A DNA stretch of 64,000 nucleotides from Modestobacter sp. VKM Ac-2982. GTDB lineage: Bacteria > Actinomycetota > Actinomycetes > Mycobacteriales > Geodermatophilaceae. The notes beneath the pieces were generated by a model, which ran no database searches, was not told the origin of the DNA, and worked only from the letters and a program-made list of their open reading frames with translations. Location: positions 372,001-436,000 of the forward strand of contig NZ_JAPVBL010000004.1 of assembly GCF_026967935.1 (NCBI RefSeq). Direction: 5' to 3'. Positions 17,954 through 47,712 of this stretch are shown one piece after another. A program made the position numbers and the translations under genes. Positions within the stretch are counted from its first letter, which is position 1; every line of letters starts with the position of its first letter.

Positions 17954-17958
17954 ACGAC

Positions 17959-17992
17959 GACCCCGGCTGCGCCGTCGTGCGCAGCCGGGGTC
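17959..17992. terminator. bidirectional hairpin terminator
   Basis: A perfect 14-bp stem, GACCCCGGCTGCGC (17959-17972) with GCGCAGCCGGGGTC (17979-17992), and a 6-base loop lie in the 45 bases between the convergent serine hydrolase and response regulator genes. Confidence 0.85.
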
Positions 17993-17998
17993 CGACTC

Positions 17999-34132: not shown

Positions 34133-35659
34133 TCAGCGCTCAGGCGGGTCGATGGCGGGCGGGACCCCGGTGTTCATCACCTCGAGGACGGTGTGCGCGT
34201 TCAGGTGTGCCCCGCTCAGCCGGGCGCAGATCCGCCCCTCGTGGAAGACGGCCACCTCGTCGCAGATCGCCGCCAGCTCCCGGGGGTCGGACGAGGCCAC
34301 GAGCTGGACGGCCCCCCGACGCGACTGCTCCTGCAGCAGCTTGTAGATCTCCGCCTTCGCCCCGACGTCGATGCCCCGGGTCGGGTCGTCGAGCAGGAGA
34401 ACCGAGGGGTCGGACTCGAACCACTTGGCGAAGACGACCTTCTGCTGGTTGCCCCCGGAGAGCATCCCCACCTCCTGGTCGACCGACGGTGTCTTGATCC
34501 CCAGGCTCGCCACCTGGAGCTGGGCCCGGTCGCGCAGCCGCCCGGCTCGTACCAGCAGCCCGTCCCGCCGCAGCCCGACGGTGCTCACCTGGGCCACGTT
34601 GTCCCAGACGGACTTGTCCAGCATGACGCCGAAGCGCTTGCGGTCCCCGGAGATGATCGCGACGCCCTGCTCGATGGCACCGCGGATGCTGTGCCGCAGC
34701 GACCTGCCGTCGGGCAGGACGACCCGGCCACGGTCCGGCCGCACGACGCCCGCAGCCACGCTGAGCAGGGCCCGGTGCCCGGCGCCGTCGACGCCGGCCA
34801 GTCCGACGACCCGGCCGGCGGGCACCACGAGGTCGACCCCGCGCAGCTCGTCGCCGAGCGTCACGTCCTCGAAGCGGAGCGCCGGTGCACCAGGGTCGAC
34901 CGCGTCGGAGTCGATGTGCGACCGCGCCTCCATCTCCGCGGCCACCCGGTCCCCGAGCATGTGCTGCACGATCCGGTCGACCGACAGGGTGTGGGCCGGC
35001 ACGGCCGGGACCGCCACCAGACCGTCGCGCATGATCGTGACGGTGTCGCAGACGTCGAGCACGTCCTCGAGGTGGTGCGAGACGTACACGATCGCCACGT
35101 CTCGCGCGGCCAGCCGCCGGATGACCTGGTGCAGCTGGGTCGTGGCGTCCTCGTGCAGGGCTGACGTGGGTTCGTCCAGCACCAGCACCCGCGGGTCGGT
35201 GCACAGTGCCCGCGCGATCTCCAGGAGCTGGCGCTGCTCCAGCGCCAGCTCCTCGACGGACTGGTCGAGGTCCACGTGCAGGCCGAGCTCGTCGAGCACC
35301 GGCCGGGCCTTCTCCGCCATCCTGCGCCGGGCCACCAGCCCGCCCCGCCGCGGCTCGCGCATCGGGAAGAGGTTGGCCAGCACGTCGAGGTCGGGGAAGA
35401 GACTGAGTTCCTGCGAGACCACGGCGATGCCGCTGTCCACGGCGTCGGCGGTGGTGCGCACGCGCAGTTCCCGCCCGTCGAGGCGCAGGACACCCGAATC
35501 GGGCGGGAGAGCCCCCACCAGGACCTTGATCAGCGTCGACTTCCCCGCGCCGTTCTCGCCGAGCAGCGCGTGCACGGTGCCGGGACGGACGGAGAAGTCG
35601 ACCCCACCGAGGGCGACGACGCCGCCGTAGGTCTTCCGGATGCCCTGCGCCTCGAGCAC
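34133..35659 (-). CDS. CUT2-type sugar ABC transporter ATPase (two nucleotide-binding domains)
   Basis: A 508-residue double ATPase of the RbsA/MglA type. The first domain has an active Walker A (GENGAGKST), signature LALEQRQLLEIARAL and Walker B VLVLDEPTSALH. The second has the degenerate loop VDGAGHRALLSV, usual for this family, and signature LSGGNQQKV with Walker B VLLLDDPTRGID. GTG 35657-35659 lies 4 bases after the stop of the substrate-binding protein gene. Third gene of a permease, binding protein, ATPase operon at the edge of the catabolic island, so the importer may carry its substrate rather than a sugar. Confidence 0.93.
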   Translation of the reverse strand: MLEAQGIRKTYGGVVALGGVDFSVRPGTVHALLGENGAGKSTLIKVLVGALPPDSGVLRLDGRELRVRTTADAVDSGIAVVSQELSLFPDLDVLANLFPMREPRRGGLVARRRMAEKARPVLDELGLHVDLDQSVEELALEQRQLLEIARALCTDPRVLVLDEPTSALHEDATTQLHQVIRRLAARDVAIVYVSHHLEDVLDVCDTVTIMRDGLVAVPAVPAHTLSVDRIVQHMLGDRVAAEMEARSHIDSDAVDPGAPALRFEDVTLGDELRGVDLVVPAGRVVGLAGVDGAGHRALLSVAAGVVRPDRGRVVLPDGRSLRHSIRGAIEQGVAIISGDRKRFGVMLDKSVWDNVAQVSTVGLRRDGLLVRAGRLRDRAQLQVASLGIKTPSVDQEVGMLSGGNQQKVVFAKWFESDPSVLLLDDPTRGIDVGAKAEIYKLLQEQSRRGAVQLVASSDPRELAAICDEVAVFHEGRICARLSGAHLNAHTVLEVMNTGVPPAIDPPER

Positions 35660-35663
35660 CGGG

Positions 35664-36761
35664 TCAGTCCGAACCGGGGAAGGGCCGCAGCGGCGGGTCG
35701 GCGAGCTCGGCGTCGATCTCGTCGCGATAGAACTCCAGCTTGGCCTCGCTCGACTCCTGCCGCTCCTGGGTCTCCGCCACGTTCTCCTGGGTGACCAGGG
35801 CTGCCGAGCTGACCCACCAGCCCTCGAAGATCTCACGCTCCCCCATCGCTGCCTCGATGAGGATGCGGGTGGAGAGGTAGCCCTTGAGGAAGTGCTGCGG
35901 GTCGACCGTGGCGAAGTTGGTGCCGTCGGCGATCGCCTGCAGGCCCGCCTCGTTCAGGTCGAAGGCGCCGGTGAGGTAGGTGCCGCCCGCCTCCCGGTTC
36001 AGCTGCGCCAGCGAGGCGAGCGCGGCGTCACCGGCGTCCATGAACACGGTCGCGTCCCGGTTGGCCGCGACGAGGTTCGACCAGGCGCCGTAGTTGCCCG
36101 TCGGGTCGGGAGCGCTGGCCACCGGACCGACGACCTCGAAGTCCGGCAGGCTCTCGGCGAAGGCCGCCGCCATGCCCTCGGCCCGGTTGTCCAGCGTCGG
36201 GATCCCGGGGATCGGGCTGGCGACGACCGCCGTGCCCTGTGTCGTGCCCGCCTCCTCCAGCAGACGGATCGCCTCGTCGGCGAGCAGCGCACCGGCCTCG
36301 GCGTTGTCGTTGCCGATGTAGGCGGTCACCTCCGAGCCCTCCAGCGGCGGGGTGTCGACCGAGATGACCGGGATGTCCTGCTGGGCGGCCCGAGCCTGCG
36401 CCCGGACCAGCAGGTCCGGGGTCAGCGACTCGACGGCGATGCCGTCGGTGGCACTGCGCATGGCGTCCTCGAACATCCGCACCTGCGCCGGCCCGTCGAG
36501 GCTGGTCGGCGCGAGGAGCTGGACGTCGACCCCGAACTCCTCGCCGGCGGCCTCGGCCCCGGCCAGCATCTCGCGGACGAAGTTCTGGCTCCCGTCGGCG
36601 CCGATGAAGGCGATGTTGATGTCCTCGGGCGCCTTCCCCTCTGCGGCTGCTCCTTCTCCCGAGTCGCCGTTCCCGTCGCCGCTGCCGCAGGCAGTCACGA
36701 GGAGCACCGCGGCGAGGGCGGTGATCCCCGCGGCGGTGCGACGGGTCGGTCCGATGGGCAC
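35664..36761 (-). CDS. CUT2-type substrate-binding lipoprotein
   Basis: A 365-residue periplasmic-binding-fold lipoprotein. The signal peptide ends in the lipobox LLVTAC, followed by a Gly/Asp/Glu-rich linker. The type-I binding fold (INIAFIGADGSQNFVREML, IPVISVDTPP, AYIGNDNAEAGALLA, ATVFMDAGDAALAS) is that of the ribose/autoinducer-2 group. GTG 36759-36761 follows an AAGGACGA site. Cognate ligand unknown; because aromatic-degradation genes surround it, an aromatic glycoside or other non-sugar is possible. The spacer to the permease gene (134 bases) holds no gene. Confidence 0.92.
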   Translation of the reverse strand: MPIGPTRRTAAGITALAAVLLVTACGSGDGNGDSGEGAAAEGKAPEDINIAFIGADGSQNFVREMLAGAEAAGEEFGVDVQLLAPTSLDGPAQVRMFEDAMRSATDGIAVESLTPDLLVRAQARAAQQDIPVISVDTPPLEGSEVTAYIGNDNAEAGALLADEAIRLLEEAGTTQGTAVVASPIPGIPTLDNRAEGMAAAFAESLPDFEVVGPVASAPDPTGNYGAWSNLVAANRDATVFMDAGDAALASLAQLNREAGGTYLTGAFDLNEAGLQAIADGTNFATVDPQHFLKGYLSTRILIEAAMGEREIFEGWWVSSAALVTQENVAETQERQESSEAKLEFYRDEIDAELADPPLRPFPGSD

Positions 36762-36895
36762 AGTCGTCCTTGAGCGTGTACGCACGGTTCCTCCAGTTGG
36801 TGAGACGGGGTGGAGCACGGGGGCGCCGAGGTGTCGGCGTCCCTCGGGGACATCAGCGGACCGGCCCGGGGGCCGTCCGGTGGGGGCGCTCCGAG

Positions 36896-37972
36896 TCAGA
36901 GCCGCAGGCCTCCGGCGGCACGGGACTGGCGCCGCCTCCGGCGGACGAAGCTGTCCAGCGACACCGCGCCGAGGATCACCGCGCCGAGGGCGAACTGGTT
37001 CCAGTTGATCGGGACGCTGAAGTAGGCCAGCCCGCTGCCGACCACCCCGAGCAGGATCGCGCCGAGCGCGGCGCCCACGATGGTCGCCCGCCCGCCGGCC
37101 AGCGAGGTGCCGCCGATCACCGCAGCGGCGATCGCCTGCAGCTCGTAGCCGGTGCCGGTGTTGGGATCCGCCGCGCCGAGGTAGCCGATGGTCAGCACGC
37201 CGGCGAGCCCGCCCAGCACGCCCGTGAGCACGAACGCCTGCATCCGCACCTTCCCGACCGGGATGCCGCTGAACGCGGCGGCGTCGGGGTTCGACCCGAT
37301 CGAGCGCACCCGGTAGCCGAACGGCGTGGCGCGCAGGACGACGGTCAGCACGGACGCGACCACGATCAGCGTCCACCCCGGCACCGGGATGCCGAGGAAC
37401 TGCGCGCTGACCACCTGCGCGAAGGAGGACTCCAGCGGCGGCCCGAGCACCTGGGTGCCCTCGCTGAGCGCCAGGGTGAGCCCGCGGTACATGGCCAGCG
37501 TCGCCAGCGTGGCGACGATCGAGGGGAGCCCGGCGTACTGGATGAGCAGCGCGTTCACCAGGCCGAGCAACCCACCGACGACGATGGCCAGCGCGGCTGC
37601 GAGCCACGGGTTGACGCCCTCCTGGACGAGCATCGCGCAGGCCAGAGCGGTCAACGCGTACACCGAGCCCACGGAGAGGTCGAGCTCCCGCATGGCCAGG
37701 AGGAAGGCCAGGCCGCAGGCGAGGATCCCGATGTAGGCGGCGTTGTTGAGGATCGAGGCCAGCTGGCCGGCCTCGAGGAAGCGCGGGTGGAAGGCCCCGA
37801 TGAGCAGGACGAGGGCGATCGTCGCCGCCAGCACCCCGAGGTACTCCTGCCCGAGGACCACCCGACCGACACGTCGGGGAGACCAGCCCGAGGACAGCTG
37901 CGGGGGTCCGGCTTCCGGGCTGTCAGGACCGGCGCCCGGCGACGACGTCGACGAGACGGCGGTGCCGCTCAT
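36896..37972 (-). CDS. CUT2-type ABC transporter permease
   Basis: A 358-residue RbsC/AraH-like membrane permease with about ten helices after a 45-residue Pro/Ser-rich cytosolic N-terminus. Typical segments are LACGLAFLLAMRELDLSVGS (the EAA-like loop of the family), FGYRVRSIGSNPDAAAFSGIPV and AAVIGGTSLAGG. The ATG (37970-37972) has no ribosome site of its own and overlaps the stop of a 25-codon ORF in an ATGA, so its translation may depend on that small ORF. First major gene of the importer operon. Confidence 0.92.
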   Translation of the reverse strand: MSGTAVSSTSSPGAGPDSPEAGPPQLSSGWSPRRVGRVVLGQEYLGVLAATIALVLLIGAFHPRFLEAGQLASILNNAAYIGILACGLAFLLAMRELDLSVGSVYALTALACAMLVQEGVNPWLAAALAIVVGGLLGLVNALLIQYAGLPSIVATLATLAMYRGLTLALSEGTQVLGPPLESSFAQVVSAQFLGIPVPGWTLIVVASVLTVVLRATPFGYRVRSIGSNPDAAAFSGIPVGKVRMQAFVLTGVLGGLAGVLTIGYLGAADPNTGTGYELQAIAAAVIGGTSLAGGRATIVGAALGAILLGVVGSGLAYFSVPINWNQFALGAVILGAVSLDSFVRRRRRQSRAAGGLRL

Positions 37973-38046
37973 GTCGGCACGCCGGTGTCGGTGACCGCGA
38001 CGCGGCCACGGAGCGGAACGGACGCGAGGAGCGCAGCTCCCGTCAT
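37969..38046 (-). CDS. candidate 25-residue leader ORF coupled to the permease
   Basis: A short ORF beginning ATG ACG GGA GCT GCG, preceded by GAGGA 5 bases upstream, and ending in a TGA that overlaps the permease ATG. The peptide starts MTGAALLASVPLRGRVAV and has no family match. The permease start lacks a ribosome site, which favours translational coupling. It may be a regulatory leader or simply a chance ORF. Confidence 0.35.
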   Translation of the reverse strand: MTGAALLASVPLRGRVAVTDTGVPT

Positions 38047-38083
38047 TCGGATCCTCACTTCCAGAGATGGATGGGGCGCGGCT

Positions 38084-38099
38084 GTGTGGCGCGGCACAC
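38084..38099. promoter_or_regulatory. promoter region of the ABC importer operon
   Basis: GTGTG-GCGCGG-CACAC is an inverted repeat 38 bases before the leader ORF. Upstream on the minus strand TTGACT (about 38129-38134) resembles a -35 box, with AAGGGT about 18 bases further as a weak -10. The palindrome would overlap the transcription start, a repressor position. Confidence 0.45.
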
Positions 38100-38140
38100 C
38101 CTTGGATGCAGCTCGAGCGCGAGTCAAGGTCACGTTCTGG

Positions 38141-39196
38141 TCACGTCCCCCCGGTCAGGGCGGCGTGCAGCACGCCGCGGACGTCGGCTGCGGAGACCGC
38201 GCGCGGAGCGGCCGGCGCCAGGGCGGCGACCCGTTCCGCGACCTCGTCGACCTGGTCCACCCGCAGGCCGAGGTCGCCCAAGGAGGTCGCCGCGCCGGCC
38301 TGTACGGCGAGCTGGCGCAGCGCGGCGACACCGTCGTCGGCGGCGAGGGCCCGGGCCACCCGCCGCAGGGCGTCCGGTGCCGCCTCGGAGAGCAGGGCCG
38401 CGACCGCCGGCAGCACCGCGGCGTGCACCGGCGCGTGTGGCAGGCCGAGCCCGCCGAGCTCGTGGCAGATCTTGTGGTGCAGGCCGGTGCCGGCCAGCGC
38501 CAGGACGGTGCCGCCGAGCCAGGCCCCGCGCAGCGCCGCGGCCCGCGCGCCCAGGTCCCGAGGCGTGTGGGCGAGCGCCGGGAGCGCGTCGCCCAGCTCC
38601 CGGACCCCCTCCTCCGCCAGCGCCCGGATCAGCGGGTTCGCACCGGGCAGCCAGAGCGCCTCGACACAGTGGGCCACGGCGTTCATGCCGCTGGAGGCCG
38701 TGGTGCCCGAGGGCAGGTCGACGGTCAGCTCGGGGTCGTAGACGACGACGCTCGGGCGCACCCGCTCATCCCGTCCGGTCGTCTTCCGCCCCTCCTCGGT
38801 GGTGCCCCAGATCGGGGTCATCTCCGAGCCGGAGTAGGTGGTGGGGACGACGACCAGCGGGCGCCCGGAGGTCAGCGCGACCGCCTTCGCCAGCCCCACT
38901 GCCGAGCCACCCCCCACGGCCAGCAGCAGGTCGGCGTCCACCTCGTCCGCCACCGCCCGGGCCCGTGCCGCCGAGGCCACGGGGACGTGCTCGACAGCGC
39001 CGTCCAGAGTGGCCACGTGCGCCGTCCCCAGGGCCGCCTGCTGCTCGGCCACGGCAGCCTGCTGCGACCGTCCGGTCACGATGAGGACCCGACGCCCACC
39101 CAGGCGCGCCACCTCACCCGGCACGTCGGCCCGCCGCCCGGGCCCGAACAGGACCCGGGTCGGCAGGCCGTCCAGGTCGAACCGTTCGTCGCTCAC
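38141..39196 (-). CDS. iron-containing alcohol dehydrogenase, maleylacetate reductase-like
   Basis: A 351-residue group-III (iron-containing) dehydrogenase resembling maleylacetate reductases, which reduce maleylacetate to 3-oxoadipate with NAD(P)H after hydroxyquinol ring cleavage. The nucleotide loop is LLAVGGGSAVGLAKAVAL, followed by the reductase-typical PTTYSGSEMTPIWG; metal and active-site His residues lie in NAVAHCVEALW and TGLHHKICHELGG. It is divergent from the AraC regulator. An intradiol dioxygenase of hydroxyquinol type lies in the facing operon, which strongly supports this assignment over a plain alcohol dehydrogenase. Confidence 0.88.
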   Translation of the reverse strand: MSDERFDLDGLPTRVLFGPGRRADVPGEVARLGGRRVLIVTGRSQQAAVAEQQAALGTAHVATLDGAVEHVPVASAARARAVADEVDADLLLAVGGGSAVGLAKAVALTSGRPLVVVPTTYSGSEMTPIWGTTEEGRKTTGRDERVRPSVVVYDPELTVDLPSGTTASSGMNAVAHCVEALWLPGANPLIRALAEEGVRELGDALPALAHTPRDLGARAAALRGAWLGGTVLALAGTGLHHKICHELGGLGLPHAPVHAAVLPAVAALLSEAAPDALRRVARALAADDGVAALRQLAVQAGAATSLGDLGLRVDQVDEVAERVAALAPAAPRAVSAADVRGVLHAALTGGT

Positions 39197-39265
39197 GCCC
39201 CGGCTCCTCCCGCTCGGTCACCACGTCGGGGGCAGCATCGCCGGTACGGCGCGCGCGGTGGGCCA

Positions 39266-39294
39266 TGTCACGGCGACAAGGGCCAGATGGCCCT
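39266..39294. promoter_or_regulatory. two adjacent palindromes in the MAR/AraC divergent spacer
   Basis: TGTCACGGCGACA (39266-39278, one mismatch) and AGGGCC-AGAT-GGCCCT (39279-39294, perfect 6-bp arms) lie back to back in the 229-base spacer between the maleylacetate reductase-like and AraC-type genes. They are candidate regulator sites; AraC proteins usually bind direct repeats, so another factor is possible. Confidence 0.45.
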
Positions 39295-39396
39295 ACTTCT
39301 CCGCGCCGACCGGACACCGGGCGCGCATCCCGGACACCGCACACCACCGGGTCGGCACGTTCGTGCAGTTCGCCGTCCGCCATCTAGCCTGGGGCC

Positions 39397-39429
39397 GTGT
39401 CCACCGTCACAGTCCGGGTCGCGCCATGA
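39397..39429 (+). CDS. candidate 10-residue leaderless upstream ORF of the AraC gene
   Basis: TAGCCT (39385-39390) lies 6 bases before GTG 39397, as in leaderless actinobacterial genes. The resulting ORF encodes VSTVTVRVAP and its TGA overlaps the ATG of the AraC gene (ATGA). The AraC start has only a weak ribosome site, so coupling from the short ORF is plausible. It could be a chance ORF. Confidence 0.35.
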   Translation: MSTVTVRVAP

Positions 39430-40406
39430 CCACGGCACTCCCGCTGCAGCGCTTCCTGCTGTGCCGTTCGCTGGACGTCCACGAGTTCACCGGGCGCCTC
39501 AACGACGCCTACTACCCGGCCGAGGTCGCACCGCAGCTGGGCCGCCGGTTCACCCACCCCTCGGTGCTGCACGCGCTGCGGACCGAGGACGTCACGCTGG
39601 GCTTCATCCGACCCGGCGGCAGCGTGCGCGTGACCCCGGAGCTGGAGTCGACGAGCTACCACGTCAACCTGGCGCTGTCCGGTTCCGCGGTGGCGGTCGC
39701 CGGCCGGGAGGAGGTGCTCGTGCAGCCCGGCTTCGCGGCGGTGCACACCGCCGGGGAGCGGCACCAGCTCCGCACCCAGGCCGACAGCGGCCTGATCGGG
39801 CTCAAGCTCAGCCGGGGTCTGGTCGAGCGGGAGCTGAGCGCGCTCCTCGGCCACCCGGCCGCCGGACCGGTCCGCTTCTCCCCCGCCTTCGACCTGCGCG
39901 GGCCGGCCGGCCGGTCCTGGCTGGCGATGGTGCAGTTCCTGCTGGACGAGCTCGACCGGCCGGGGGTGTTCGACACCCCGGCTGTCCGCGACAGCTACCT
40001 GCGCAGCCTGGTGACGGGGCTGCTGAGCAGCCAGCCGCACAACTGGAGCGAGGCGCTGCGCTCCGGCGGCGCCCCGCTCCGCCCGCGCACCGTGCGTCGC
40101 GCCCAGGAGTTCATCAAGGACCACTTCGCCGAGCCGCTCACGGTGACCGACGTCGCGCGGGCCACCGGGTCCAGCGTGCGCCGGCTGCAGGAGTCCTTCT
40201 CGGCGCACCTGGACGTCTCGCCGATGGGGTACCTGCGCGACGTACGACTGGACGTCACGCGCGCCCGGCTCACGGCCGGGGGGATCAGCGTCACCGAGGC
40301 TGCGCAGCAGTGCGGCTTCACGCACCTCGGCCGGTTCTCCGCGGCCTACCGCGCCCGCTTCGGGGAGCTGCCCTCCGCCACGGGCGCCGACGCCCCGCCC
40401 GCCTGA
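39426..40406 (+). CDS. AraC family transcriptional regulator
   Basis: A 326-residue AraC-type activator with an AraC-binding-like N-terminal domain (FIRPGGSVRVTPELESTSYHV is the characteristic opening) and two C-terminal helix-turn-helices (LTVTDVARATGSSVRRLQESF, then ISVTEAAQQCGFTHLGRFSAAYRARFG). This subgroup often regulates aromatic-compound operons. It is divergent from the maleylacetate reductase gene and lies between the importer and the catabolic operon, so it is the likely local regulator. ATG 39426 overlaps the stop of a 10-codon upstream ORF. Confidence 0.92.
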   Translation: MTTALPLQRFLLCRSLDVHEFTGRLNDAYYPAEVAPQLGRRFTHPSVLHALRTEDVTLGFIRPGGSVRVTPELESTSYHVNLALSGSAVAVAGREEVLVQPGFAAVHTAGERHQLRTQADSGLIGLKLSRGLVERELSALLGHPAAGPVRFSPAFDLRGPAGRSWLAMVQFLLDELDRPGVFDTPAVRDSYLRSLVTGLLSSQPHNWSEALRSGGAPLRPRTVRRAQEFIKDHFAEPLTVTDVARATGSSVRRLQESFSAHLDVSPMGYLRDVRLDVTRARLTAGGISVTEAAQQCGFTHLGRFSAAYRARFGELPSATGADAPPA

Positions 40407-40458
40407 GCGGTCCGCGGCGTCGACGGCCGCGGCGTCCGGCTGGAGCCGGCGGCGGCGC

Positions 40459-41010
40459 TCAGCCCTCGCCCGGCAGGTTCCCGCCGATGAGCACGAACGC
40501 CAGCACGCACGGCTCGTCGGAGCGGTTGGACCAGGCGTGCGCGGTGCCCCGCTGGACGAGCACGTCGCCGGCGGTCATCCGCACCTCGGTCGCGTCCAGC
40601 ACCGCCCAGACCTCCCCGCTCAGCACGATGGCGTAGTCGATGGACCGGGTGGTGTGGAACGCCATCGGGCGGACCTCGTTCCCGTCGGCGTCGAAGCGCC
40701 AGTCCCGGTCCGGGGGCAGCTCGAGCGTCCGGAAGACGGTGCCCTGCTCCGGTGGCCCGACGCTCAGCTGCTCGTCCGTGTCGTAGGGGTCGCGCAGCGG
40801 ACCGGTGTTGTCGGCCGGCGTGGTCTCGGTCCGCCACAGCTGGGTGGCCACGTAGGTGGGCACCCCGTGCCCGGCCGCGGCGTGCCGGGCGACGTCCTCC
40901 AGGACGATGGTCGAGCGCCCCTCGTCGTCCAGGCCGGTGACCAGTCGGCGGATCCGGCGCGTCGACGGCGCGGGGGCCACGTCGCTGATGAACGGGTTGT
41001 AGTCGGCCAC
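40459..41010 (-). CDS. cupin-domain protein
   Basis: A 183-residue single-cupin protein. The first cupin motif region reads AFHTTRSIDYAIVLSGEVWAVLD (where Hx3-4E ligands are partly replaced), and the second GDVLVQRGTAHAWSNRSDEPC keeps the typical His. It resembles uncharacterised cupins found beside aromatic-degradation genes. Metal binding and catalysis are uncertain because only some ligands are evident. GTG 41008-41010 has a GGAGA site. It is divergent from the CocE-dioxygenase-molybdenum hydroxylase operon, so it probably acts in the same pathway or its control. Confidence 0.8.
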   Translation of the reverse strand: MADYNPFISDVAPAPSTRRIRRLVTGLDDEGRSTIVLEDVARHAAAGHGVPTYVATQLWRTETTPADNTGPLRDPYDTDEQLSVGPPEQGTVFRTLELPPDRDWRFDADGNEVRPMAFHTTRSIDYAIVLSGEVWAVLDATEVRMTAGDVLVQRGTAHAWSNRSDEPCVLAFVLIGGNLPGEG

Positions 41011-41037
41011 GCCGTCTCCTCTGTCCAGGACCCGGCC

Positions 41038-41144
41038 GGTCGCCGGATCGCGCCGGACAGTAGGCCGGTCGGCCCGGGCGGCGAGGTGCATCCCGGCGGC
41101 CCTCGGCAGGTCCGGCCGGATCGGTCGCGGATCGCGGACAGTGG
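41038..41144. promoter_or_regulatory. divergent promoter with a repeated motif
   Basis: Two related sequences, 41038-41064 and 41123-41144, share GGTCGC, GGATCGC and GGACAGT followed by a G-rich end; one has two short insertions. A 10-bp palindrome TCCGGCCGGA lies between them (41111-41120). TACGTT at 41182-41187 could be the -10 box for the rightward operon. The motif pair is a candidate for the island's regulator. Confidence 0.45.
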
Positions 41145-41254
41145 TCGCGTCAGGTGGACAGCCGACCCGCGCGGCCGCGGTTACGTTCTCCCGGCCCCGA
41201 CCCGGAGCCGGTCCACACCGGCCGGGTCCGCCTCGAGAAAGGCCTCCGCGACCC

Positions 41255-43060
41255 ATGCCGTCCCCGCTGTCACCGGAGCACGTGCCCCCCGGCTACGACC
41301 GGGCACCCGAGTACGAGGGGATGGTCGTCGAGCGGGACGTCTACGTGCCCATGCGGGACGGCGTGCAGCTGTGCGTCGACGTCTACCGGCCCGACACGGA
41401 CACCCCGCAGCCGGCGCTGCTGGCGTTCGCCATCTACAACAAGGACATCCAGGGGCCGGACACCGCGACGGCGATCCCGCCGCAGCCGGCCTGGTCGCCG
41501 CTGTGGAGCGGACCGATGGAGGCCGGCGACACCCGGTTCCTCGTCTCCCGCGGCTACGTGCACGTGATCGGGATGCCGCGCGGTGTCGGGAAGTCCGAGA
41601 GCGGGGGCTCCCGCACCTGGGACTCCTACGACCTCATCGAGTGGATCGCCCAGCAGCCCTGGTGCGACGGGAACGTCGGGATGGTCGGCATCTCCGGCTT
41701 CGGCGCCGAGCAGGTGCACGTGGCCCGGCAGAAGCCGCCGCACCTGAAGGCGGTCTTCCCGTTCGACCCCCGTGGCGCCTACGGCGAGCTGGGCGGCTTC
41801 CGGGAGGAGTACCCCGGCGGGGTCGTGCACCTCTTCCGCTACCTGGTGGGCCACTTCGGCACGTTCCACCAGGACCGCGGCGCCCCCGGTGAGCTGCCCC
41901 CCGAGCGCGAGGCCCTCTGGCGCGAGGCGATGGCCGACCCGGACTACGCGATCCACCCGCACCTGGTGAACATCCTGTCGATGAAGGGCCAGCACATGCC
42001 GGCCTACTTCAACGTGCTCATCGACCCCTTCGAGGCCGAGGGCGTGCTGGAGCGCAGCGAGGCCGGCTTCGCCGACATCGACATCCCGGTCTACACCGGC
42101 TCGGGTTGGTACGCCTACACCTACAAGACCCACCTGCAGGGGGCGCAGAGCTACTGGCGGAACATCGCCAGCCAGGACAAGAAGCTGCTCTTCCTCGGGC
42201 CGGCCCACCTCGAGCGCCCCTTCCACGGGATGCACTCGGAGATCCTCCGCTGGTACGACCACTGGCTGAAGGGCCTCGACACCGGGGTGCTCGACGAGCC
42301 ACCGGTCCGCTACTGGGTCACCGGCGCCAACGCCTGGCGGACCGGCACGGACTGGCCGCTGCCGGAGACCGAGTGGACACCGCTGCACCTCAGCAGCTGG
42401 GAGCGGCTGCGCCCGGAGCCGTTCGTGCCGATGTCGGTGGACGACCACATCCCGCCGGACTCCTTCGTGCAGATGCCGCTCACCCACACCCGGAAGGTCA
42501 CCGGGCTCCGCTACGTCAGCGAGCCCCTGAGCGAGCCGATGCTGATCGCCGGACCGGCGAAGCTGACCCTGTACGCGGCCCTCGACCAGGACGACACCAC
42601 CTGGATGGTCTCGCTCAAGGACATCGGGCCGGACCCGCACGTGATGACCGTCCGGGAGGGTGAGCGGGAGCTGCACCCCGACCTGCCCGAGCGGGAGCTC
42701 ACCCGGGGCTGGCTGAAGGCCTCGAACCGCGCACTGGACCCCGAGCGCAGCACCGAGTGGAAGCCGTTCCACCGGCTGACCCGCGCCGCGGCCGAGCCGG
42801 TGACCCCCGGCGAGGTGGTGCAGTACGAGATCGAGATCCTCGCGACGGCCAACCTGTTCCAGCCCGGTCACCGGATCTGCCTGGAGATCACCAGCATGGA
42901 CGTGCCCACCGGGGTCGCCGGGGCGACCAACGCCGAGTACGTGCCCTACCACGTGTCCAGCTCGCGGACGACGCTGCACACGATCTACCACGACACCGCC
43001 CGGCCGTCGGCGCTGCTGCTGCCGGTCGTGCCGCTCGATCCGCCTGGGGGAAACGCATGA
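41255..43060 (+). CDS. CocE/NonD family hydrolase
   Basis: A 601-residue serine hydrolase of the CocE/NonD (X-Pro dipeptidyl-peptidase S15) group, whose members cleave esters or amides such as cocaine, and glutaryl-7-ACA. The nucleophile region is GNVGMVGISGFGAEQ (Ser in GISG), after PMRDGVQLCVDVYRP and the domain-typical RGVGKSESGG; a C-terminal jelly-roll follows (LTLYAALDQDDTTWMVSLKD). No signal peptide is seen. ATG 41255 opens a five-gene operon in which each junction overlaps by 4 bp. In this context it would release an aromatic acid or alcohol from an ester or amide precursor; that is inference. Confidence 0.88.
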   Translation: MPSPLSPEHVPPGYDRAPEYEGMVVERDVYVPMRDGVQLCVDVYRPDTDTPQPALLAFAIYNKDIQGPDTATAIPPQPAWSPLWSGPMEAGDTRFLVSRGYVHVIGMPRGVGKSESGGSRTWDSYDLIEWIAQQPWCDGNVGMVGISGFGAEQVHVARQKPPHLKAVFPFDPRGAYGELGGFREEYPGGVVHLFRYLVGHFGTFHQDRGAPGELPPEREALWREAMADPDYAIHPHLVNILSMKGQHMPAYFNVLIDPFEAEGVLERSEAGFADIDIPVYTGSGWYAYTYKTHLQGAQSYWRNIASQDKKLLFLGPAHLERPFHGMHSEILRWYDHWLKGLDTGVLDEPPVRYWVTGANAWRTGTDWPLPETEWTPLHLSSWERLRPEPFVPMSVDDHIPPDSFVQMPLTHTRKVTGLRYVSEPLSEPMLIAGPAKLTLYAALDQDDTTWMVSLKDIGPDPHVMTVREGERELHPDLPERELTRGWLKASNRALDPERSTEWKPFHRLTRAAAEPVTPGEVVQYEIEILATANLFQPGHRICLEITSMDVPTGVAGATNAEYVPYHVSSSRTTLHTIYHDTARPSALLLPVVPLDPPGGNA

Positions 43061-43977
43061 CCAACACGCAGACCGATGCCGGCCTCGCCGACGACGACGT
43101 CGCCGACATCGACGAGCACACCGTCACCGACGCCGTCGTCACGAGCTTCGCCGGGACGTCGGACGCCCGGCTGCGCGAGGTGCTGGGCGCGCTCGTGCGT
43201 GGCCTGCACACCGCGATCCGGGAGGTGGAGCCGACGCTCGCGGAGTGGGAGTACGCGATCGACTTCCTGACCCGCACCGGCCAGAAGTGCGATGACGTGC
43301 GGCAGGAGTTCGTGCTGCTCTCCGACGTCCTGGGGATCTCCTCGCTGGTGGAGAACATCAACCACCGCAAGGTCGGCGGAGCCACGGAGGCGACCGTCCT
43401 CGGGCCCTTCCACATGACCGTCTCGCCACCGCGGAGCAACGGGGACACCATCGACGAGGTGGGCGGCACCAGGCCGTGCGTCGTCACCGGCCGGGTGCTC
43501 TCCGTCTCCGGTGAGCCGGTGCCCGGGGCCAGGGTCGACGTGTGGCAGGCCGACGACAACGGCTTCTACGACGTGCAGCAGCCCGATCGGCAGCCCGCGG
43601 GCAACGGCCGCGGGCTGTTCACCACCGACGACGAGGGCCGGTTCTGGTTCCGCACCACCGTCCCGGCGCACTACCCGATCCCCACCGACGGCCCGGTCGG
43701 GGAGCTGCTCACGGCGACCGACCGGCTGCCGTACCGGCCGGCGCACATCCACTTCATCGCCGACGCCCCGGGGTACGTGCCGGTGACCACGCACATCTTC
43801 GTCGAGGGCAGCCCCTACCTGGACGCCGACGCGGTCTTCGCGGTCAAGCGCAGCCTGGTCCGCGACTTCGCCCCGGTCGACGACGCCGAGCAGGCCGAGC
43901 GGTACGGCACGGTCAACCCGTTCCGGCTCGCCGTCATCGACCTCGTGGTCGAGCCGGCCGGAACGCCCTCCCCGTGA
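43057..43977 (+). CDS. intradiol ring-cleavage dioxygenase (hydroxyquinol 1,2-dioxygenase-like)
   Basis: A 306-residue Fe(III) intradiol dioxygenase. The N-terminal linker domain has the usual helices (FLTRTGQKCDDVRQEFVLLSDVLGISSLVE); VLGPFHM is typical of hydroxyquinol and hydroxybenzoquinol enzymes. The four iron ligands are visible: Tyr in DNGFYDVQ, Tyr in LPYRPAHIHF and the two His of the same HIH. It opens a catechol or hydroxyquinol ring between the hydroxyls. With the maleylacetate reductase-like gene nearby, hydroxyquinol (1,2,4-trihydroxybenzene) is the best candidate substrate. ATG overlaps the CocE stop (ATGA). Confidence 0.9.
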   Translation: MTNTQTDAGLADDDVADIDEHTVTDAVVTSFAGTSDARLREVLGALVRGLHTAIREVEPTLAEWEYAIDFLTRTGQKCDDVRQEFVLLSDVLGISSLVENINHRKVGGATEATVLGPFHMTVSPPRSNGDTIDEVGGTRPCVVTGRVLSVSGEPVPGARVDVWQADDNGFYDVQQPDRQPAGNGRGLFTTDDEGRFWFRTTVPAHYPIPTDGPVGELLTATDRLPYRPAHIHFIADAPGYVPVTTHIFVEGSPYLDADAVFAVKRSLVRDFAPVDDAEQAERYGTVNPFRLAVIDLVVEPAGTPSP

Positions 43978-46355
43978 CCACCGCGGTCCCGCCGCGGCTG
44001 ACCGGCTCGCCGGTCCGCCGCCAGGACGGCGACGTGTTCGTCACCGGCCGGGCGGTGTACACCGCCGACGTGCGGGCCGACGGGGCGGCGCACGTGGCGC
44101 TGGTCCGCTCGCCGCACGCACACGCCCGGATCGTGGCCATCGACGCCGCGGCGGCCCGGGCGCTGCCCGGGGTGCTGGCCGTGGTCACCGGCGACGAGGC
44201 GGCCGAGCACTGCGAGGAGATCCCGCACGGCCTGGACGCCGGTCACCTGGGCGGCCACCACGCGGTGGTCCGGCCGCTGGCGGTGGGCACGGCGCTGTAC
44301 GCCGGTGAGCCCGTCGCCGCGGTGGTCGCCACGAACGCCGCCGACGCGGCGCTGGCCGCAGCTGCGGTGGAGGTGACCTGGGAGCGGCTTCCGGTGGTGC
44401 TCGACGCCGAGCAGGCGCTGCTCCCCGGCGCCCCGCTGCTCTACCCGGACTGGGGCGACAACCTCATCATCGAGCGGGACGTGGGCCCGGACGACTTCAC
44501 CGCGGCCGCGGCGGACGCAGCGCACGTCCTGGAGGGCGAGCTGCGCACCCACCGGGGCACGGCCGCGCCGATGGAGACCCGCAGCTACCTCGCCGACTGG
44601 GACCCGGCCGCCGGGAAGATGACCGTGCACGCGACGACCCAGAACCCGCACGTCCTGCGCACCGTGCTCGCCGCGACCCTCCGGCTCGACGAGGAGGCGG
44701 TGCACGTGATCGCCCCGGCGCTCGGCGGGTCGTTCGGCCTGAAGATGTACGGCAACCGGGAGGACTTCATCGTCCCCCTGCTGGCCCGGATGCTGGGCCG
44801 GCCGGTCCGGTGGGTCGAGGAGCGCTCGGCGACGCTGCTGGCCGGCACCCGCGAACAGGTGCTGCGGTACCGGGTGGCCGCCGCCGCGGACGGCCGGCTG
44901 CTGGCGCTGGACGTGCACGCCATCGCCGACCACGGGGCAGCGGCGCCGACCCACGGCTGGGGCATGGCGCACGTGGGGGCGCTGGCGACCGGCCTGGGCT
45001 ACGCCCTCCCCTCCTGCCACGTGCGGTACCAGGTCGTGGCCACGAACAAGGCCCCCTGGGTGGGCACGAAGCCGTTCGGCAAGGACGGCGCCACGCTGCT
45101 GCTGGAACGGGTCGTCGACCGCGTCGCCCAGGTAGTCGGCGTGCACCCGGCCGAGGTGCGCCGGCGCAACTTCGTCCCGCCCGACTCGTTCCCGTGGCTG
45201 CACACCTCCGGCCTGGAGCTGGACAGCGGCGACTACGCGACGGCCCTGGACCTGACCTTGAAGCGGCTGGACCACCCCGCGGTCCTGGCCGAGCAGCGCA
45301 CCGCGCGCGCCGCCGGCCGGTTGCTGGGCATCGGGCTGGCCTTCGAGCTGATGCCGGAGAGCGCCGACATCCCCGGCGCCCTGGTGTCCGCCTTCGACAC
45401 CTCGACGGTCCGGATGTCACCGACCGGCCGGGTCACCGTGCTCACCGGCGTGACCTCGCCCGGCACGGGCAACGAGACGGCGATCGCCCAGCTGGTCGCC
45501 GACGAGCTGGGCGTGCCCATGTCGTCGGTCCAGGTCGTGCAGGGCGACACGGAACGGTGCCCGTACGGCTTCGGCAACATCTCCAGCCGGTCGATCATCA
45601 CCGGCGGGAACGCCGCCGTGCTGGCCGCCCGCGACGTCGCGGCCACGCTGCGCGCCACCGCCCGCGCGATGCTGCAGGTCGAGCCGACCGAGGAGGTCGT
45701 GCTGGCCGGGAACGCCGCGGCCCTGGCCGCCGACCCGTCCCGGGTGCTGCCGCTGGCCGTGGTCGCGGGGGCGGTGCACACCCTCAGCTACCGGCTGGCG
45801 CTGGACGTCGAGCCGCGCCTGGAGTCCACCCGCACCTACCGGCCCGGCAACGTGCGCCAGGTGCCCGACGCCCTCGGCCGGATGCAGACCTACACCACCT
45901 ACCCGTACGCGGTGCACGCCAGCGTGCTGGAGGTCGACCCGGAGACCGGTTCGGTCACCCTGCTGCGGCACGTGGTGACCCACGACTGCGGCACCGTGGT
46001 GAACCCGATGTTCGTCGACGGCCAGGTCACCGGCGGGGTGGCCATGGGGATCGGCGCCGCGCTGGGCGAGGAGCTCGTCTTCGACCCCGACGGCGTGCCG
46101 CTGACCACCGGGTTCAAGACCTACCTGCTGCCCCGGGCGATCGACCTGCCGACGGTGGAGCTGGAGCACCTGTGCACCCCGGCCCCTGGCACGCCGCTGG
46201 GCGCCAAGGGCGTCGGGGAGTCCGGCTTCTCCGGCGCACTGGCCGCCGTGGTGAACGCGGTCAACGACGCGCTGGCCCCGCACGGGGCGGCGCTGGAGTC
46301 GACACCGGTCAGCCCGCCGCGCATCCTCGCCGCCCTGCAGGCGGTGGGCCGGTGA
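43974..46355 (+). CDS. molybdenum hydroxylase large (Moco) subunit, CoxL/XDH type
   Basis: A 793-residue molybdopterin-binding subunit of the xanthine dehydrogenase family. Clear motifs: GRAVYTADVRADGAAHVALVRS at the N-terminus, ALGGSFGLKMYGNREDF, KAPWVGTKPFGKDG in the substrate channel, GTGNETAIAQ and the catalytic Glu in LGAKGVGESGFSG. CoxL's AYRCSFR loop is not evident, so carbon monoxide oxidation is unlikely. These enzymes hydroxylate N-heterocycles, aldehydes or aromatics with water as oxygen donor. GTG 43974 overlaps the dioxygenase stop by 4 bp. Its product is probably the dioxygenase's substrate or its precursor. Confidence 0.93.
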   Translation: MTTAVPPRLTGSPVRRQDGDVFVTGRAVYTADVRADGAAHVALVRSPHAHARIVAIDAAAARALPGVLAVVTGDEAAEHCEEIPHGLDAGHLGGHHAVVRPLAVGTALYAGEPVAAVVATNAADAALAAAAVEVTWERLPVVLDAEQALLPGAPLLYPDWGDNLIIERDVGPDDFTAAAADAAHVLEGELRTHRGTAAPMETRSYLADWDPAAGKMTVHATTQNPHVLRTVLAATLRLDEEAVHVIAPALGGSFGLKMYGNREDFIVPLLARMLGRPVRWVEERSATLLAGTREQVLRYRVAAAADGRLLALDVHAIADHGAAAPTHGWGMAHVGALATGLGYALPSCHVRYQVVATNKAPWVGTKPFGKDGATLLLERVVDRVAQVVGVHPAEVRRRNFVPPDSFPWLHTSGLELDSGDYATALDLTLKRLDHPAVLAEQRTARAAGRLLGIGLAFELMPESADIPGALVSAFDTSTVRMSPTGRVTVLTGVTSPGTGNETAIAQLVADELGVPMSSVQVVQGDTERCPYGFGNISSRSIITGGNAAVLAARDVAATLRATARAMLQVEPTEEVVLAGNAAALAADPSRVLPLAVVAGAVHTLSYRLALDVEPRLESTRTYRPGNVRQVPDALGRMQTYTTYPYAVHASVLEVDPETGSVTLLRHVVTHDCGTVVNPMFVDGQVTGGVAMGIGAALGEELVFDPDGVPLTTGFKTYLLPRAIDLPTVELEHLCTPAPGTPLGAKGVGESGFSGALAAVVNAVNDALAPHGAALESTPVSPPRILAALQAVGR

Positions 46356-47215
46356 TCCCGGCACGCTTCCGGCACGTCGCGCCGGCCGACCTCGGCGGCT
46401 GCGTCGCCGCGCTCGCCGAGGGCGGGCGGGTGCTCGCCGGGGGCACCTGGGTGCTGCCGGAGATGTCGCGGGGCGAGTCCGCGCCGGCGCAGCTCGTCGA
46501 CCTGCGGCGCGCCGGGCTGGCCGAGCTGACCGCGACCGCCGACGGTTTGCAGATGGGCGCGATGTGCACCTACGCGGACCTGCTCGGCAGCGGCCCGGTG
46601 GCCGAGCACGCCCCCCTGCTGCGGACGATGGCCGGGGGCATCACCGGCGGCTGGGCCCTGCGCAACCAGGCGACGGTCGGTGGCGCCGCGATGGCCGCCC
46701 GCCCCCAGTCCGACGTCCCGGCCGCCCTGGTCGCCTGCGCGGCGGTGGCCCGGGTCGCCGGCCCGCGCGGTGCCCGCGACATCCCCGCCGCCGAGCTCTT
46801 CGCCGGCGCCATGCGCCCCTCCCTGGCACCGGACGAGGTGCTCGCCGGCTTCCGGGTGCCGTCCGCGGCGGGCGCGGGCTCCGGGTACGTGAAGCTCAAG
46901 CGCGGCGGGAGCTCCTGGCCGATCGCGACCGCGGCCGCGGTGGTGCGCCTGGACGCCGTGGGCCTCTGCACCGAGGCGACGCTCGTCCTGGGCGGGGTGG
47001 CCGCCGTCCCGGTCCGGATCGACGTCTCCGCCCTGCTCGGCCGGGTGGTCGTCGACGACGACGTCCGGGCGGTCACCGCTGCGGTGGCCGACGCCCTGCC
47101 GGAGCCGTGGGGAGACGTGCTGGCGCCGGCGTCCTACCGAGCGGCCGTGGCCGCACCCGTGGCGCGCCGGGCGCTGAGCGCAGCGGTCGCCGACGCTGAG
47201 GAGGAACGGGCATGA
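46352..47215 (+). CDS. molybdenum hydroxylase FAD-binding (medium) subunit
   Basis: A 287-residue CoxM/FAD-binding subunit. The FAD-binding opening (GGCVAALAEGGRVLAGGTWVLPEM) and the second site GGITGGWALRNQATVGGAAMAARPQSD, equivalent to the CoxM TIGGNLA stretch, are present. It carries electrons from the molybdenum centre to an acceptor. GTG 46352 overlaps the large-subunit stop by 4 bp, and its own stop overlaps the ATG of the iron-sulfur subunit. Gene order large, medium, small differs from the common medium-small-large order of CO dehydrogenase operons. Confidence 0.92.
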   Translation: MIPARFRHVAPADLGGCVAALAEGGRVLAGGTWVLPEMSRGESAPAQLVDLRRAGLAELTATADGLQMGAMCTYADLLGSGPVAEHAPLLRTMAGGITGGWALRNQATVGGAAMAARPQSDVPAALVACAAVARVAGPRGARDIPAAELFAGAMRPSLAPDEVLAGFRVPSAAGAGSGYVKLKRGGSSWPIATAAAVVRLDAVGLCTEATLVLGGVAAVPVRIDVSALLGRVVVDDDVRAVTAAVADALPEPWGDVLAPASYRAAVAAPVARRALSAAVADAEEERA

Positions 47216-47712
47216 CCGGGGAGGAGGGACGCGTGGAGCTGCGGCTGACCGTCGACGGAGCGGAACGGACGGCGAGCATCGACCCGCGGTCACTCCTGCT
47301 CGACGCGCTGCGGGACGAGCTGGGCGCGATCGCGCCCAAGGCCGGCTGCCGCACCGGCGACTGCGGGGCGTGCACCGTCCGGGTCGACGGTGCGATCGCC
47401 AAGTCCTGCCTCCGGCTGGCGGTCGCCGACGACGGGTGCGAGGTGCGGACGACCGCGTCGATGGCCGTGGGCGGCGAGCTGACACCGCTGCAACAGGCCT
47501 TCTGGGACACCAACGCGTTCCAGTGCGGGTTCTGCCTGTCGGGCATGCTGTTCGCGGCCGAGGACCTGCTCGAGCGCACCCCGTCCCCCTCCGAGACCGA
47601 GGTCCGGGAGGCGATCAGCGGCAACCTGTGCCGCTGCACCGGTTACGACGCCATCGTCGCCGCCGTCCTCAGCTGCGCGGCCCCGCCGGTCAGATCCAGT
47701 CGCGGCGCTTGA
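47212..47712 (+). CDS. molybdenum hydroxylase [2Fe-2S] (small) subunit
   Basis: A 166-residue CoxS-type electron-transfer subunit with two [2Fe-2S] clusters. The plant-ferredoxin-type cluster uses KAGCRTGDCGACTVRVDG and a downstream Cys in AKSCL; the second cluster uses FQCGFCLSGM and NLCRCTGYDAI. The three subunits together form the complete hydroxylase. ATG 47212 overlaps the medium-subunit stop (ATGA). The last 23 bases overlap the 3' end of the convergent corA gene. No Moco-insertion chaperone (CoxD/XdhC type) was found in the window. Confidence 0.95.
   Translation: MTGEEGRVELRLTVDGAERTASIDPRSLLLDALRDELGAIAPKAGCRTGDCGACTVRVDGAIAKSCLRLAVADDGCEVRTTASMAVGGELTPLQQAFWDTNAFQCGFCLSGMLFAAEDLLERTPSPSETEVREAISGNLCRCTGYDAIVAAVLSCAAPPVRSSRGA

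What the first reader, a model, noticed from the sequence alone, without database searches (positions are those of the whole stretch)
34133..47712. Catabolic island for an unidentified aromatic or heteroaromatic compound
A dedicated ABC importer, AraC regulator, cupin, CocE/NonD hydrolase, three-subunit molybdenum hydroxylase, hydroxyquinol-type intradiol dioxygenase and maleylacetate reductase-like enzyme stand together. The predicted order is uptake, ester or amide hydrolysis, ring hydroxylation with water, ortho cleavage, then reduction to 3-oxoadipate. I know of no pathway with this exact set, and the starting compound is open. Genes for 3-oxoadipate thiolysis are not in the window.
Basis: partly seen in the sequence, partly recalled or inferred. 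Interest (0 to 1): 0.7.

Follow-up and report, generated by a model that had tools for sequence, protein, structure and literature searches.

The report
Strain-variable hydroxyquinol-type aromatic catabolic operon
A soil actinobacterium carries a tidy set of genes that most likely imports an unknown plant-type aromatic compound and breaks its ring down to ordinary cell fuel; some close relatives keep only the ring-cutting enzyme of the set.

Summary
The ring-cleavage end is well supported: the dioxygenase groups with hydroxyquinol, not catechol, enzymes, and the MAR keeps six active-site residues and the HHKxCH signature. One other fetched genome has the whole set at the same place. In five relatives the locus holds an intact dioxygenase with remnants of cocE and/or MAR, so there the unit was lost. 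Elsewhere 11 of 57 loci with a close CocE relative have the dioxygenase within 10 kb and 8 also MAR, with differing front ends (FAD hydroxylases, C-glycoside deglycosidases, molybdenum enzymes); 46 of 57 show no dioxygenase. The CocE is a subfamily without the usual acid residue. The molybdenum enzyme belongs to a clade with an altered cofactor-loop motif. Nothing here fixes the substrate. I rate it a new variant of the known hydroxyquinol/3-oxoadipate pathway.

The parts
34133..35659 (-). rbsA-like sugar-type ABC importer ATPase (two ABC domains)
   Evidence: ABC_tran 2 stretches; nearest NCBIfam AraG/YtfR, below cut-off; start chosen at GTG 35659
35664..36785 (-). rbsB-like periplasmic-binding protein
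   Evidence: Peripla_BP_4 2.6e-38; nearest NCBIfam rhizopine SBP, 76.7 of 420 bits needed
36896..37972 (-). rbsC-like permease
   Evidence: BPD_transp_2 2.5e-46
38141..39196 (-). maleylacetate reductase (MAR)
   Evidence: best PDB matches 3jzd, 3iv7, 3hl0, 3w5s; LHHKICHELGG against the PcpE signature LHHKLCHTLGG and a His 64 residues earlier as in PcpE
39310..39340 (+). candidate regulator site: two CCGGACACCG copies 20 bp apart between MAR and araC
   Evidence: 4 CGGACA sites in 875 bp of intergenic DNA, 0.52 expected; partly kept in L010; motif chosen after looking, weak
39426..40406 (+). AraC-family regulator
   Evidence: AraC_binding_2, HTH_18, HTH_AraC
40459..41010 (-). small cupin
   Evidence: Cupin_2 (run on the longer reading from 41091); PDB 3es1, 8x0u (same); GTG start at 41010 agrees with L009 and L010
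41255..43060 (+). CocE/NonD-type serine hydrolase, subfamily lacking the CocE acid residue
   Evidence: TIGR00976; Ser147 and His318 kept, GWYD of CocE is GWYA
43057..43977 (+). hydroxyquinol-type intradiol dioxygenase
   Evidence: Dioxygenase_N and _C; top five PDB matches (PnpC, 6-chlorohydroxyquinol and hydroxyquinol enzymes, one unnamed intradiol enzyme) 227-266 bits, catechol enzymes 120 bits or less
43974..46355 (+). moL: molybdopterin large subunit of a xanthine-oxidase-family hydroxylase
   Evidence: best PDB quinoline 2-oxidoreductase 1t3q 427 bits, CO dehydrogenase 8uem 421 bits; clade and motif analysis
46352..47215 (+). moM: FAD subunit
   Evidence: NCBIfam FAD-subunit models, below cut-off
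47212..47712 (+). moS: 2Fe-2S subunit
   Evidence: NCBIfam 2Fe-2S subunit models, below cut-off

Best explanation
It is an inducible catabolic unit that feeds the 3-oxoadipate (beta-ketoadipate) pathway through hydroxyquinol. Steps: (1) the RbsABC-type importer takes up the compound (inferred). (2) The molybdenum hydroxylase adds water oxygen to a carbon beside a ring heteroatom, or to an aldehyde-like carbon, giving a lactone, lactam or acid (inferred from family chemistry). (3) The CocE-type hydrolase cuts the product and frees a hydroxyquinol-type ring (inferred; the tight coupling of the two sets of genes is shown). (4) The intradiol dioxygenase cleaves hydroxyquinol to maleylacetate (strongly supported by family). 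(5) MAR reduces this to 3-oxoadipate (strongly supported by family). (6) CoA-transferase and thiolase elsewhere finish it (CoA-transferase genes shown, thiolase not looked for). AraC and the cupin regulate or assist (inferred). The likeliest substrates are oxygen-heteroaromatic plant phenolics (chromone, coumarin or isoflavonoid type), but this last point is the weakest.
For: Ring-cleavage end: dioxygenase and MAR family and residue evidence. Unit: 4-bp overlaps, conservation and constraint in G596. CocE with dioxygenase and MAR recurs in 8 of 57 loci, among them Streptomyces, Amycolatopsis, Cupriavidus and Bradyrhizobium. Mo and CocE coupling recurs: moS overlaps cocE in a Solirubrobacterales MAG (L012), moS/moM lie directly before cocE in Arsenicitalea (L059), and a two-gene Mo enzyme precedes cocE by 0.26 kb in Bradyrhizobium CB82 (L089). 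The nearest Mo relatives have other hydrolases within about 10 kb: SMP-30 lactonase (L090, L117), MBL-fold and FAH hydrolases (L091), hydantoinase B by Pfam and A by eye (L093). Plant-phenolic hint: three of the CocE-dioxygenase-MAR loci (L011, L013, L051) carry C-glycoside deglycosylation-type genes. The Arsenicitalea locus has malonyl-CoA synthase and decarboxylase, as malonate release from an opened chromone or coumarin ring, or from malonyl esters, would need.
Against: No substrate or activity is shown for any gene. 46 of 57 close-CocE loci show no dioxygenase in the stretch held; the commonest neighbour is an enoyl-CoA-hydratase-like gene (19), and cupin plus sugar-type importer occur with CocE without dioxygenase in L014, L015 and L049. 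The C-glycoside, FAD-monooxygenase and extradiol genes of relatives are not in the island, so their substrate need not be shared. The molybdenum clade has lost the Gln of the GQG motif and the CocE the usual acid, so their chemistry may not be textbook. The nearest Mo relatives' loci show no annotated or tblastn-detected hydroxyquinol dioxygenase (for L117 annotation only). Five relatives keep the dioxygenase alone under constraint, so it has a use outside this pathway. M. lapidis (L009) has no MAR in the stretch held. The NADH-preference motif reported for MARs (LSTPEQ) is not kept: the window has VTGRSQQ there.
Confidence: 0.45

Rival explanations
1. Aldehyde and ester route: the Mo enzyme is an aromatic aldehyde oxidase and CocE a plain esterase for hydroxycinnamate or aryl esters; the hydroxylation that makes hydroxyquinol is done by a flavin enzyme elsewhere in the genome.
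For: NCBIfam scores for an aldehyde-type model are about as good as for CO dehydrogenase (glyceraldehyde dehydrogenase alpha 473.9 bits, CODH 482.8). In some relatives an FAD monooxygenase stands between CocE and the dioxygenase (L036, L088).
Against: No FAD hydroxylase is among the island genes, and the Mo genes are in one overlapping operon with the dioxygenase.
Confidence: 0.22
2. N-heteroaromatic route: the Mo enzyme hydroxylates a pyridine, quinoline or similar ring, CocE cuts an amide or lactam, and the dioxygenase cleaves the remaining dihydroxy- or trihydroxy-ring.
For: Best PDB match of moL is quinoline 2-oxidoreductase (427 bits); enzymes from a nicotine plasmid and from a quinoline degrader's plasmid are 35-36% identical.
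Against: CO dehydrogenase scores almost the same (421 bits; 34% identity). No amidohydrolase or ammonia-handling gene is among the island genes.
Confidence: 0.15
3. The dioxygenase (with MAR) is a stand-alone scavenging or detoxifying module for hydroxyquinol or catechols made by other pathways, and the Mo, CocE and importer genes are a separate catabolic unit that happened to assemble around it.
For: In five of nine genomes that keep both flanking genes, only the dioxygenase survives intact, with dN/dS 0.20-0.34 among these five.
Against: Remnants of cocE (L105, L107, L108, L109) and of MAR (L106, L107) show that a fuller set came first; CocE and this dioxygenase co-occur in Actinomycetota and Pseudomonadota loci.
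Confidence: 0.15

Closest known systems
Hydroxyquinol branch of the 3-oxoadipate pathway (resorcinol, gamma-resorcylate and 4-nitrophenol clusters: hydroxyquinol 1,2-dioxygenase + maleylacetate reductase)
   Same: Dioxygenase and MAR are of the same families with the key residues that I could check
   Different: Those clusters make hydroxyquinol with a flavin monooxygenase (recalled; an FAD monooxygenase stands beside the dioxygenase in L006, L036, L088); this one has none and has a Mo hydroxylase and CocE instead
C-glycoside catabolic clusters (CarABC/PurABC type; PMC12724307, abstract and outline seen, a term search of its text gave no match)
   Same: Three actinobacterial relatives of the CocE-dioxygenase-MAR set carry CarA-, CarB- and CarC-like genes
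   Different: No deglycosylation gene in this island
ifc isoflavone cluster of Variovorax (PMC11069340, passages and sections 16-17 read)
   Same: Cupins and an alpha/beta hydrolase among catabolic genes for a plant O-heterocycle (the hydrolase's disruption did not affect daidzein degradation there)
   Different: ifc uses an FAD 8-hydroxylase and a glyoxalase-type dioxygenase on the A-ring; this island has neither. Homology of the cupins was not tested
Quinoline 2-oxidoreductase / nicotine dehydrogenase / CO dehydrogenase (xanthine oxidase family)
   Same: Three subunits, catalytic Glu kept
   Different: 28-36% identity to the four reference large subunits compared; GQG motif Gln and loop Arg replaced
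Cocaine esterase CocE (1ju3/3ida) and 3ib3
   Same: CocE/NonD family, nucleophile Ser and a His kept
   Different: CocE's GWYD is GWYA here; 3ib3 has no Asp aligned there either

Membership tests
Hydroxyquinol 1,2-dioxygenase | Two-domain intradiol fold with Tyr/Tyr/His/His iron ligands (ligand identity recalled) | tested here: met
   Dioxygenase_N and _C; GFYDVQQ, HYPIPTD, RPAHIHF aligned with 1tmx
Hydroxyquinol 1,2-dioxygenase | Closer to hydroxyquinol than to catechol enzymes; LLSD motif of 1tmx | tested here: met
   227-266 bits to the hydroxyquinol group, at most 120 to catechol enzymes; LLSD kept. Its role in specificity is recalled
Hydroxyquinol 1,2-dioxygenase | Activity on hydroxyquinol | not testable with these tools
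   needs enzyme assay
Maleylacetate reductase | Six basic residues strictly conserved in the family (His172, His236, His237, Lys238, His241, His251 of PcpE; PMC5741723 passages) | tested here: met
   By spacing and motif, no PcpE alignment made: His176, then HHKICH 64 residues on, as in PcpE, and PH with one residue fewer. Lys140, which the paper calls not conserved, is Glu at the same spacing
Maleylacetate reductase | LSTPEQ motif linked to NADH preference (PMC5741723 passages) | tested here: not met
   VTGRSQQ at the place where 3hl0 has LSTPQQ; coenzyme preference may differ. I do not take this motif as needed for MAR activity
Xanthine-oxidase-family Mo hydroxylase | Mo, FAD and 2Fe-2S subunits | tested here: met
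Xanthine-oxidase-family Mo hydroxylase | Catalytic Glu (GxGE; role recalled) | tested here: met
   GVGES
Xanthine-oxidase-family Mo hydroxylase | GQG cofactor-loop motif (role recalled) | tested here: not met
   PGTGNET in the window, GTG/GSG/GGG in its 6 clade members; GQG in 7 of the 8 other rows, the eighth (IorB-type) not aligned there. Treated as a divergent clade of the family
CocE/NonD hydrolase | TIGR00976 above cut-off | tested here: met
   242.3 against 66.3 bits
CocE/NonD hydrolase | Ser-Asp-His triad of CocE (residue roles recalled) | tested here: not met
   Ser and His kept in the window. Of 76 distinct rows the Asp column is Ala 54, Gly 10, gap 7, Thr 2, Ser 1, Asn 1, Asp 1 (the distant second copy of L074)
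Resorcinol / gamma-resorcylate pathway cluster | Flavin monooxygenase that makes hydroxyquinol | tested here: not met
   none among the island genes
C-glycoside (Car/Pur) pathway | CarA, CarB, CarC genes | tested here: not met
   none among the island genes; present in L011, L013, L051
ifc/fde flavonoid A-ring pathway | FAD monooxygenase and VOC-type dioxygenase | tested here: not met
   none among the island genes

The most novel reading that the evidence does not exclude
A new oxygen-heterocycle route. A divergent molybdenum hydroxylase oxidises the carbon beside the ring oxygen of a chromone, coumarin or isoflavonoid, using water instead of O2. A CocE subfamily without the classical acid then opens the resulting lactone, or cuts the aryl-ketone bond, releasing hydroxyquinol (and malonate or an aryl-acetate) straight into ortho cleavage. 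Flavin, deglycosidase and molybdenum front ends are interchangeable modules on the same CocE-dioxygenase-MAR core.
Probability: 0.18. Interest if true: 0.65.

Novelty: new variant of a known kind. Interest (0 to 1): 0.42.

Why it matters
The ring-cleavage half is textbook. What is unusual is the front end: a CocE subfamily seen in 1 of 394 sampled class genomes (the query's own, at E 1e-150) and a Mo clade seen in 2 of 396 sampled phylum genomes (one the query's own, at 1e-160), both tied here to hydroxyquinol cleavage. I found no characterised member of either by sequence search of solved structures, which is not a full search of characterised proteins. If the novel reading holds, it gives a water-using bacterial entry into plant O-heterocycles and a function for this CocE subfamily. 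The locus also shows an operon lost piecemeal with one enzyme kept, which helps to read 'orphan' dioxygenases in other genomes.

Tried and rejected
Recent insertion at the tmRNA gene: a tmRNA gene lies at 33686-34060 beside the importer, but it is present with the same tag in all 8 fetched relatives, and remnants show loss in five of them, so I dropped the insertion idea.

Base-composition island: GC of the span (0.71-0.75) is like the rest of the window (0.67-0.76); no signal.

Resorcinol pathway as such: rejected for lack of a monooxygenase. C-glycoside or ifc pathway as such: rejected for lack of their defining genes.

Regulator sites: two direct repeats, partly kept in L010, post hoc, kept only as a lead.

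Literature: nine searches ran. Searches returned no paper; of the others I saw only the listed titles and abstract starts (e.g. 15 of 104, 10 of 37, 8 of 163, 10 of 80), none of which describes this gene combination. Searches asked about isoflavones and C-glycosides. The library holds only open-licence papers, so this does not show that no paper exists. The 8 papers listed show no use of the word Modestobacter.

Family search for malonyl-CoA decarboxylase in the own genome found nothing, but no control genome rang either, so it is no evidence of absence.

I did not run structure prediction or fold search, since the answer as described carries no coordinates with which to test the hydrolase active site. 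I did not test homology of the cupin to IfcD, nor look for a thiolase in the genome.

Dropped rows: the CocE scan kept the best 80 of 409 matches as 77 loci; of these 57 hold a CocE of the close cluster and enter the counts. Many have less than 10 kb of flank, so counts are lower bounds, and they include close kin (two Modestobacter, several Bradyrhizobium), so they are not independent. The 77-row alignment held the window's protein twice and some loci twice; one search recounts it as 76 rows.

Full report
What is there. Within 34133-47712 lie, on the minus strand, rbsA, rbsB, rbsC and MAR; on the plus strand an AraC gene; on the minus strand a cupin; and on the plus strand cocE, dioxygenase, moL, moM, moS. 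The last five overlap by 4 bp each, as expected of one translationally coupled operon.

Ring-cleavage end. Among solved structures the dioxygenase is nearest to PnpC (266 bits), 6-chlorohydroxyquinol and hydroxyquinol dioxygenases (263, 235 and 234 bits) and an unnamed intradiol enzyme (227); catechol enzymes reach 120 bits. No NCBIfam equivalog passes. The reductase is nearest to 3jzd, 3iv7, 3hl0 and 3w5s, the last two named maleylacetate reductase. By spacing and motif it keeps the six basic residues that a study of PcpE calls strictly conserved in the family, in LHHKICHELGG against the published signature LHHKLCHTLGG; the seventh, Lys140, which that paper calls not conserved, is Glu at the same spacing, and the LSTPEQ motif tied to NADH is not kept (PMC5741723, abstract and passages). 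So hydroxyquinol to maleylacetate to 3-oxoadipate is the best-supported part. Two 3-oxoacid CoA-transferase pairs lie on another contig, and so does an XdhC-type maturation gene (below the NCBIfam cut-off) with CoxD/CoxE-like neighbours named by eye. A further region looks by eye like a protocatechuate cluster.

A polymorphic, decaying locus. The flanking genes CorA and NSS symporter were sought in 23 genomes of the genus, own included; 19 and 9 matched, and all nine with NSS also have CorA. The gap between the two genes is about 14 kb in two (own, G596) and 0.6-3.0 kb in seven. I fetched the other eight loci. G596 carries the whole island at 82% DNA identity. Five (G039, G085, G594, G092, G584; loci L105-L109) carry only an intact dioxygenase at 91-93% DNA identity. 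Beside it lie remnants: the last 98-101 bases of cocE in L105, L108 and L109, the last 38 in L107, and both ends of MAR with the middle missing in L106 and L107. In L110 and L111 no island gene was found beyond the moS tail that overlaps CorA and, in L110, a 32-base match to moM at E 6e-5 that is probably chance. The solitary dioxygenases are under constraint among themselves (dN/dS 0.20-0.34 in 10 of 10 pairs), though pairs across the two remnant types may partly reflect time before the losses. So a fuller unit was ancestral to these five and the dioxygenase was kept. All 11 island genes have dN/dS of 0.17-0.40 against G596. M. lapidis (L009) has the operon with the importer on the other side and no MAR in the stretch held; there dN/dS runs higher, up to 0.60 for AraC.

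The company the genes keep. A scan with CocE kept the best 80 of 409 matches, 77 loci. Gene calling and clustering and a count give, for the 57 loci with a close CocE: within 10 kb an enoyl-CoA-hydratase-like gene in 19, dioxygenase in 11, cupin in 10, MAR in 8, AMP ligase in 8, moS in 6, moL in 5; 46 show no dioxygenase. The set CocE-dioxygenase-MAR has different front ends. In Streptomyces L011 and L051 and Amycolatopsis L013 it stands with an FAD monooxygenase, an FrsA-like hydrolase, an extradiol-type enzyme and C-glycoside genes: a CarC-like protein (the L051 copy matches 7dnm and 7bvr), a CGDB-domain protein (the L013 copy) and a pyranose-oxidase-like GMC protein (the L011 copy, below cut-off). 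In Cupriavidus L036 it stands with an amidohydrolase-2 protein and an FAD monooxygenase; in C. basilensis (L088) the same set has a MAR stretch that matches in two pieces and is not annotated. In Arsenicitalea L059 a Mo enzyme, a cyclase-family protein, malonyl-CoA synthase and decarboxylase, and thiolase-like and CoA-transferase-like genes (by eye) surround CocE, with no dioxygenase seen. In the samples drawn, 200 order and 394 class genomes, only the own genome matched at 1e-100 and 1e-150.

CocE. In 76 distinct aligned rows Ser147 is Ser in 73 and Gly in 3, His318 is His in 51, and the column of CocE's Asp in GWYD is Ala in 54, Gly in 10, gap in 7, other letters in 4 and Asp in 1, a distant second copy in L074. 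3ib3 has no Asp aligned there either, so the loss is wider than this subfamily. Which residue replaces it is open.

Molybdenum enzyme. Its nearest kin outside Modestobacter are 51% identical in another genome of the phylum and 44% on Caballeronia, Paraburkholderia and Pseudonocardia plasmids. A tree of 15 rows puts the island proteins and these kin in one fully supported group of 7, apart from enzymes of nicotine, quinoline, quinaldine and CO plasmids (NdhC and CO dehydrogenase as annotated, the QorL and QoxL labels are mine from the source or neighbours). The group replaces the Gln of GQG, and the three Modestobacter proteins also replace the loop Arg by Lys-Pro; the catalytic Glu stays. The kin have, within about 10 kb, an SMP-30 lactonase, MBL and FAH hydrolases, or hydantoinase genes. 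A Mo step followed by a hydrolase may thus be the common theme, which fits oxidation next to a ring heteroatom followed by opening of the lactone or lactam. That is inference.

How it most likely works. Uptake; Mo oxidation; CocE hydrolysis; hydroxyquinol ortho cleavage; reduction to 3-oxoadipate; CoA steps elsewhere. The last aromatic steps are strongly supported by family, the middle steps by gene coupling and family chemistry only, the substrate not at all. Plant O-heterocycles are my first guess because of the C-glycoside and malonate genes of relatives, and because the ifc work (PMC11069340, passages and sections 16-17) shows a bacterial cluster with cupins that degrades such rings.

Novelty. 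Nine searches of an open-licence library listed no paper on the combination (listings only, save for the three papers named above and in Closest known systems). The pathway kind is known; the front end is a new variant.

Noticed in passing
window 33686-34060 (-): tmRNA (ssrA) gene, tag ADSNQRDFALAA, directly beside the importer ATPase end; same tag in all 8 fetched genus relatives.
   Followed up: yes
L105, L106, L107, L108, L109: Solitary, constrained intradiol dioxygenase kept after loss of the rest of the operon; why it is kept is unexplained.
   Followed up: partly
L020 (9965-11800), L023 (10004-11746), L045: CocE relatives in which the nucleophile Ser is Gly (GIGAF), 3 of 76 distinct rows; they may not be serine hydrolases.
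   Followed up: no
window 30142-31176 (+) and L012 2410-3528 (+): MetE-like protein (named by eye) 3 kb left of the island in the window, and another directly after cocE in a Solirubrobacterales MAG; a link was not tested.
   Followed up: no
L088 about 17500-18134: In Cupriavidus basilensis pRK1-2 the MAR beside the CocE-dioxygenase set matches in two pieces and is not annotated; it looks broken.
   Followed up: no
L014, L015, L049: Another recurrent set around this CocE: cupin, sugar-type ABC importer, DUF3500 protein (Pfam in L014 and L049) and HpcH/HpaI-type aldolase (Pfam in L014, by eye in L015 and L049); likely a second unknown catabolic pathway.
   Followed up: partly
L093 (G346): Nearest non-Modestobacter Mo enzyme found lies with an ureidoglycolate-lyase-family protein and hydantoinase genes.
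   Followed up: partly
window 38141-39196 (-): The MAR has VTGRSQQ where other MARs have LSTPEQ/LSTPQQ, the motif linked to NADH preference, so its coenzyme use may be unusual.
   Followed up: no
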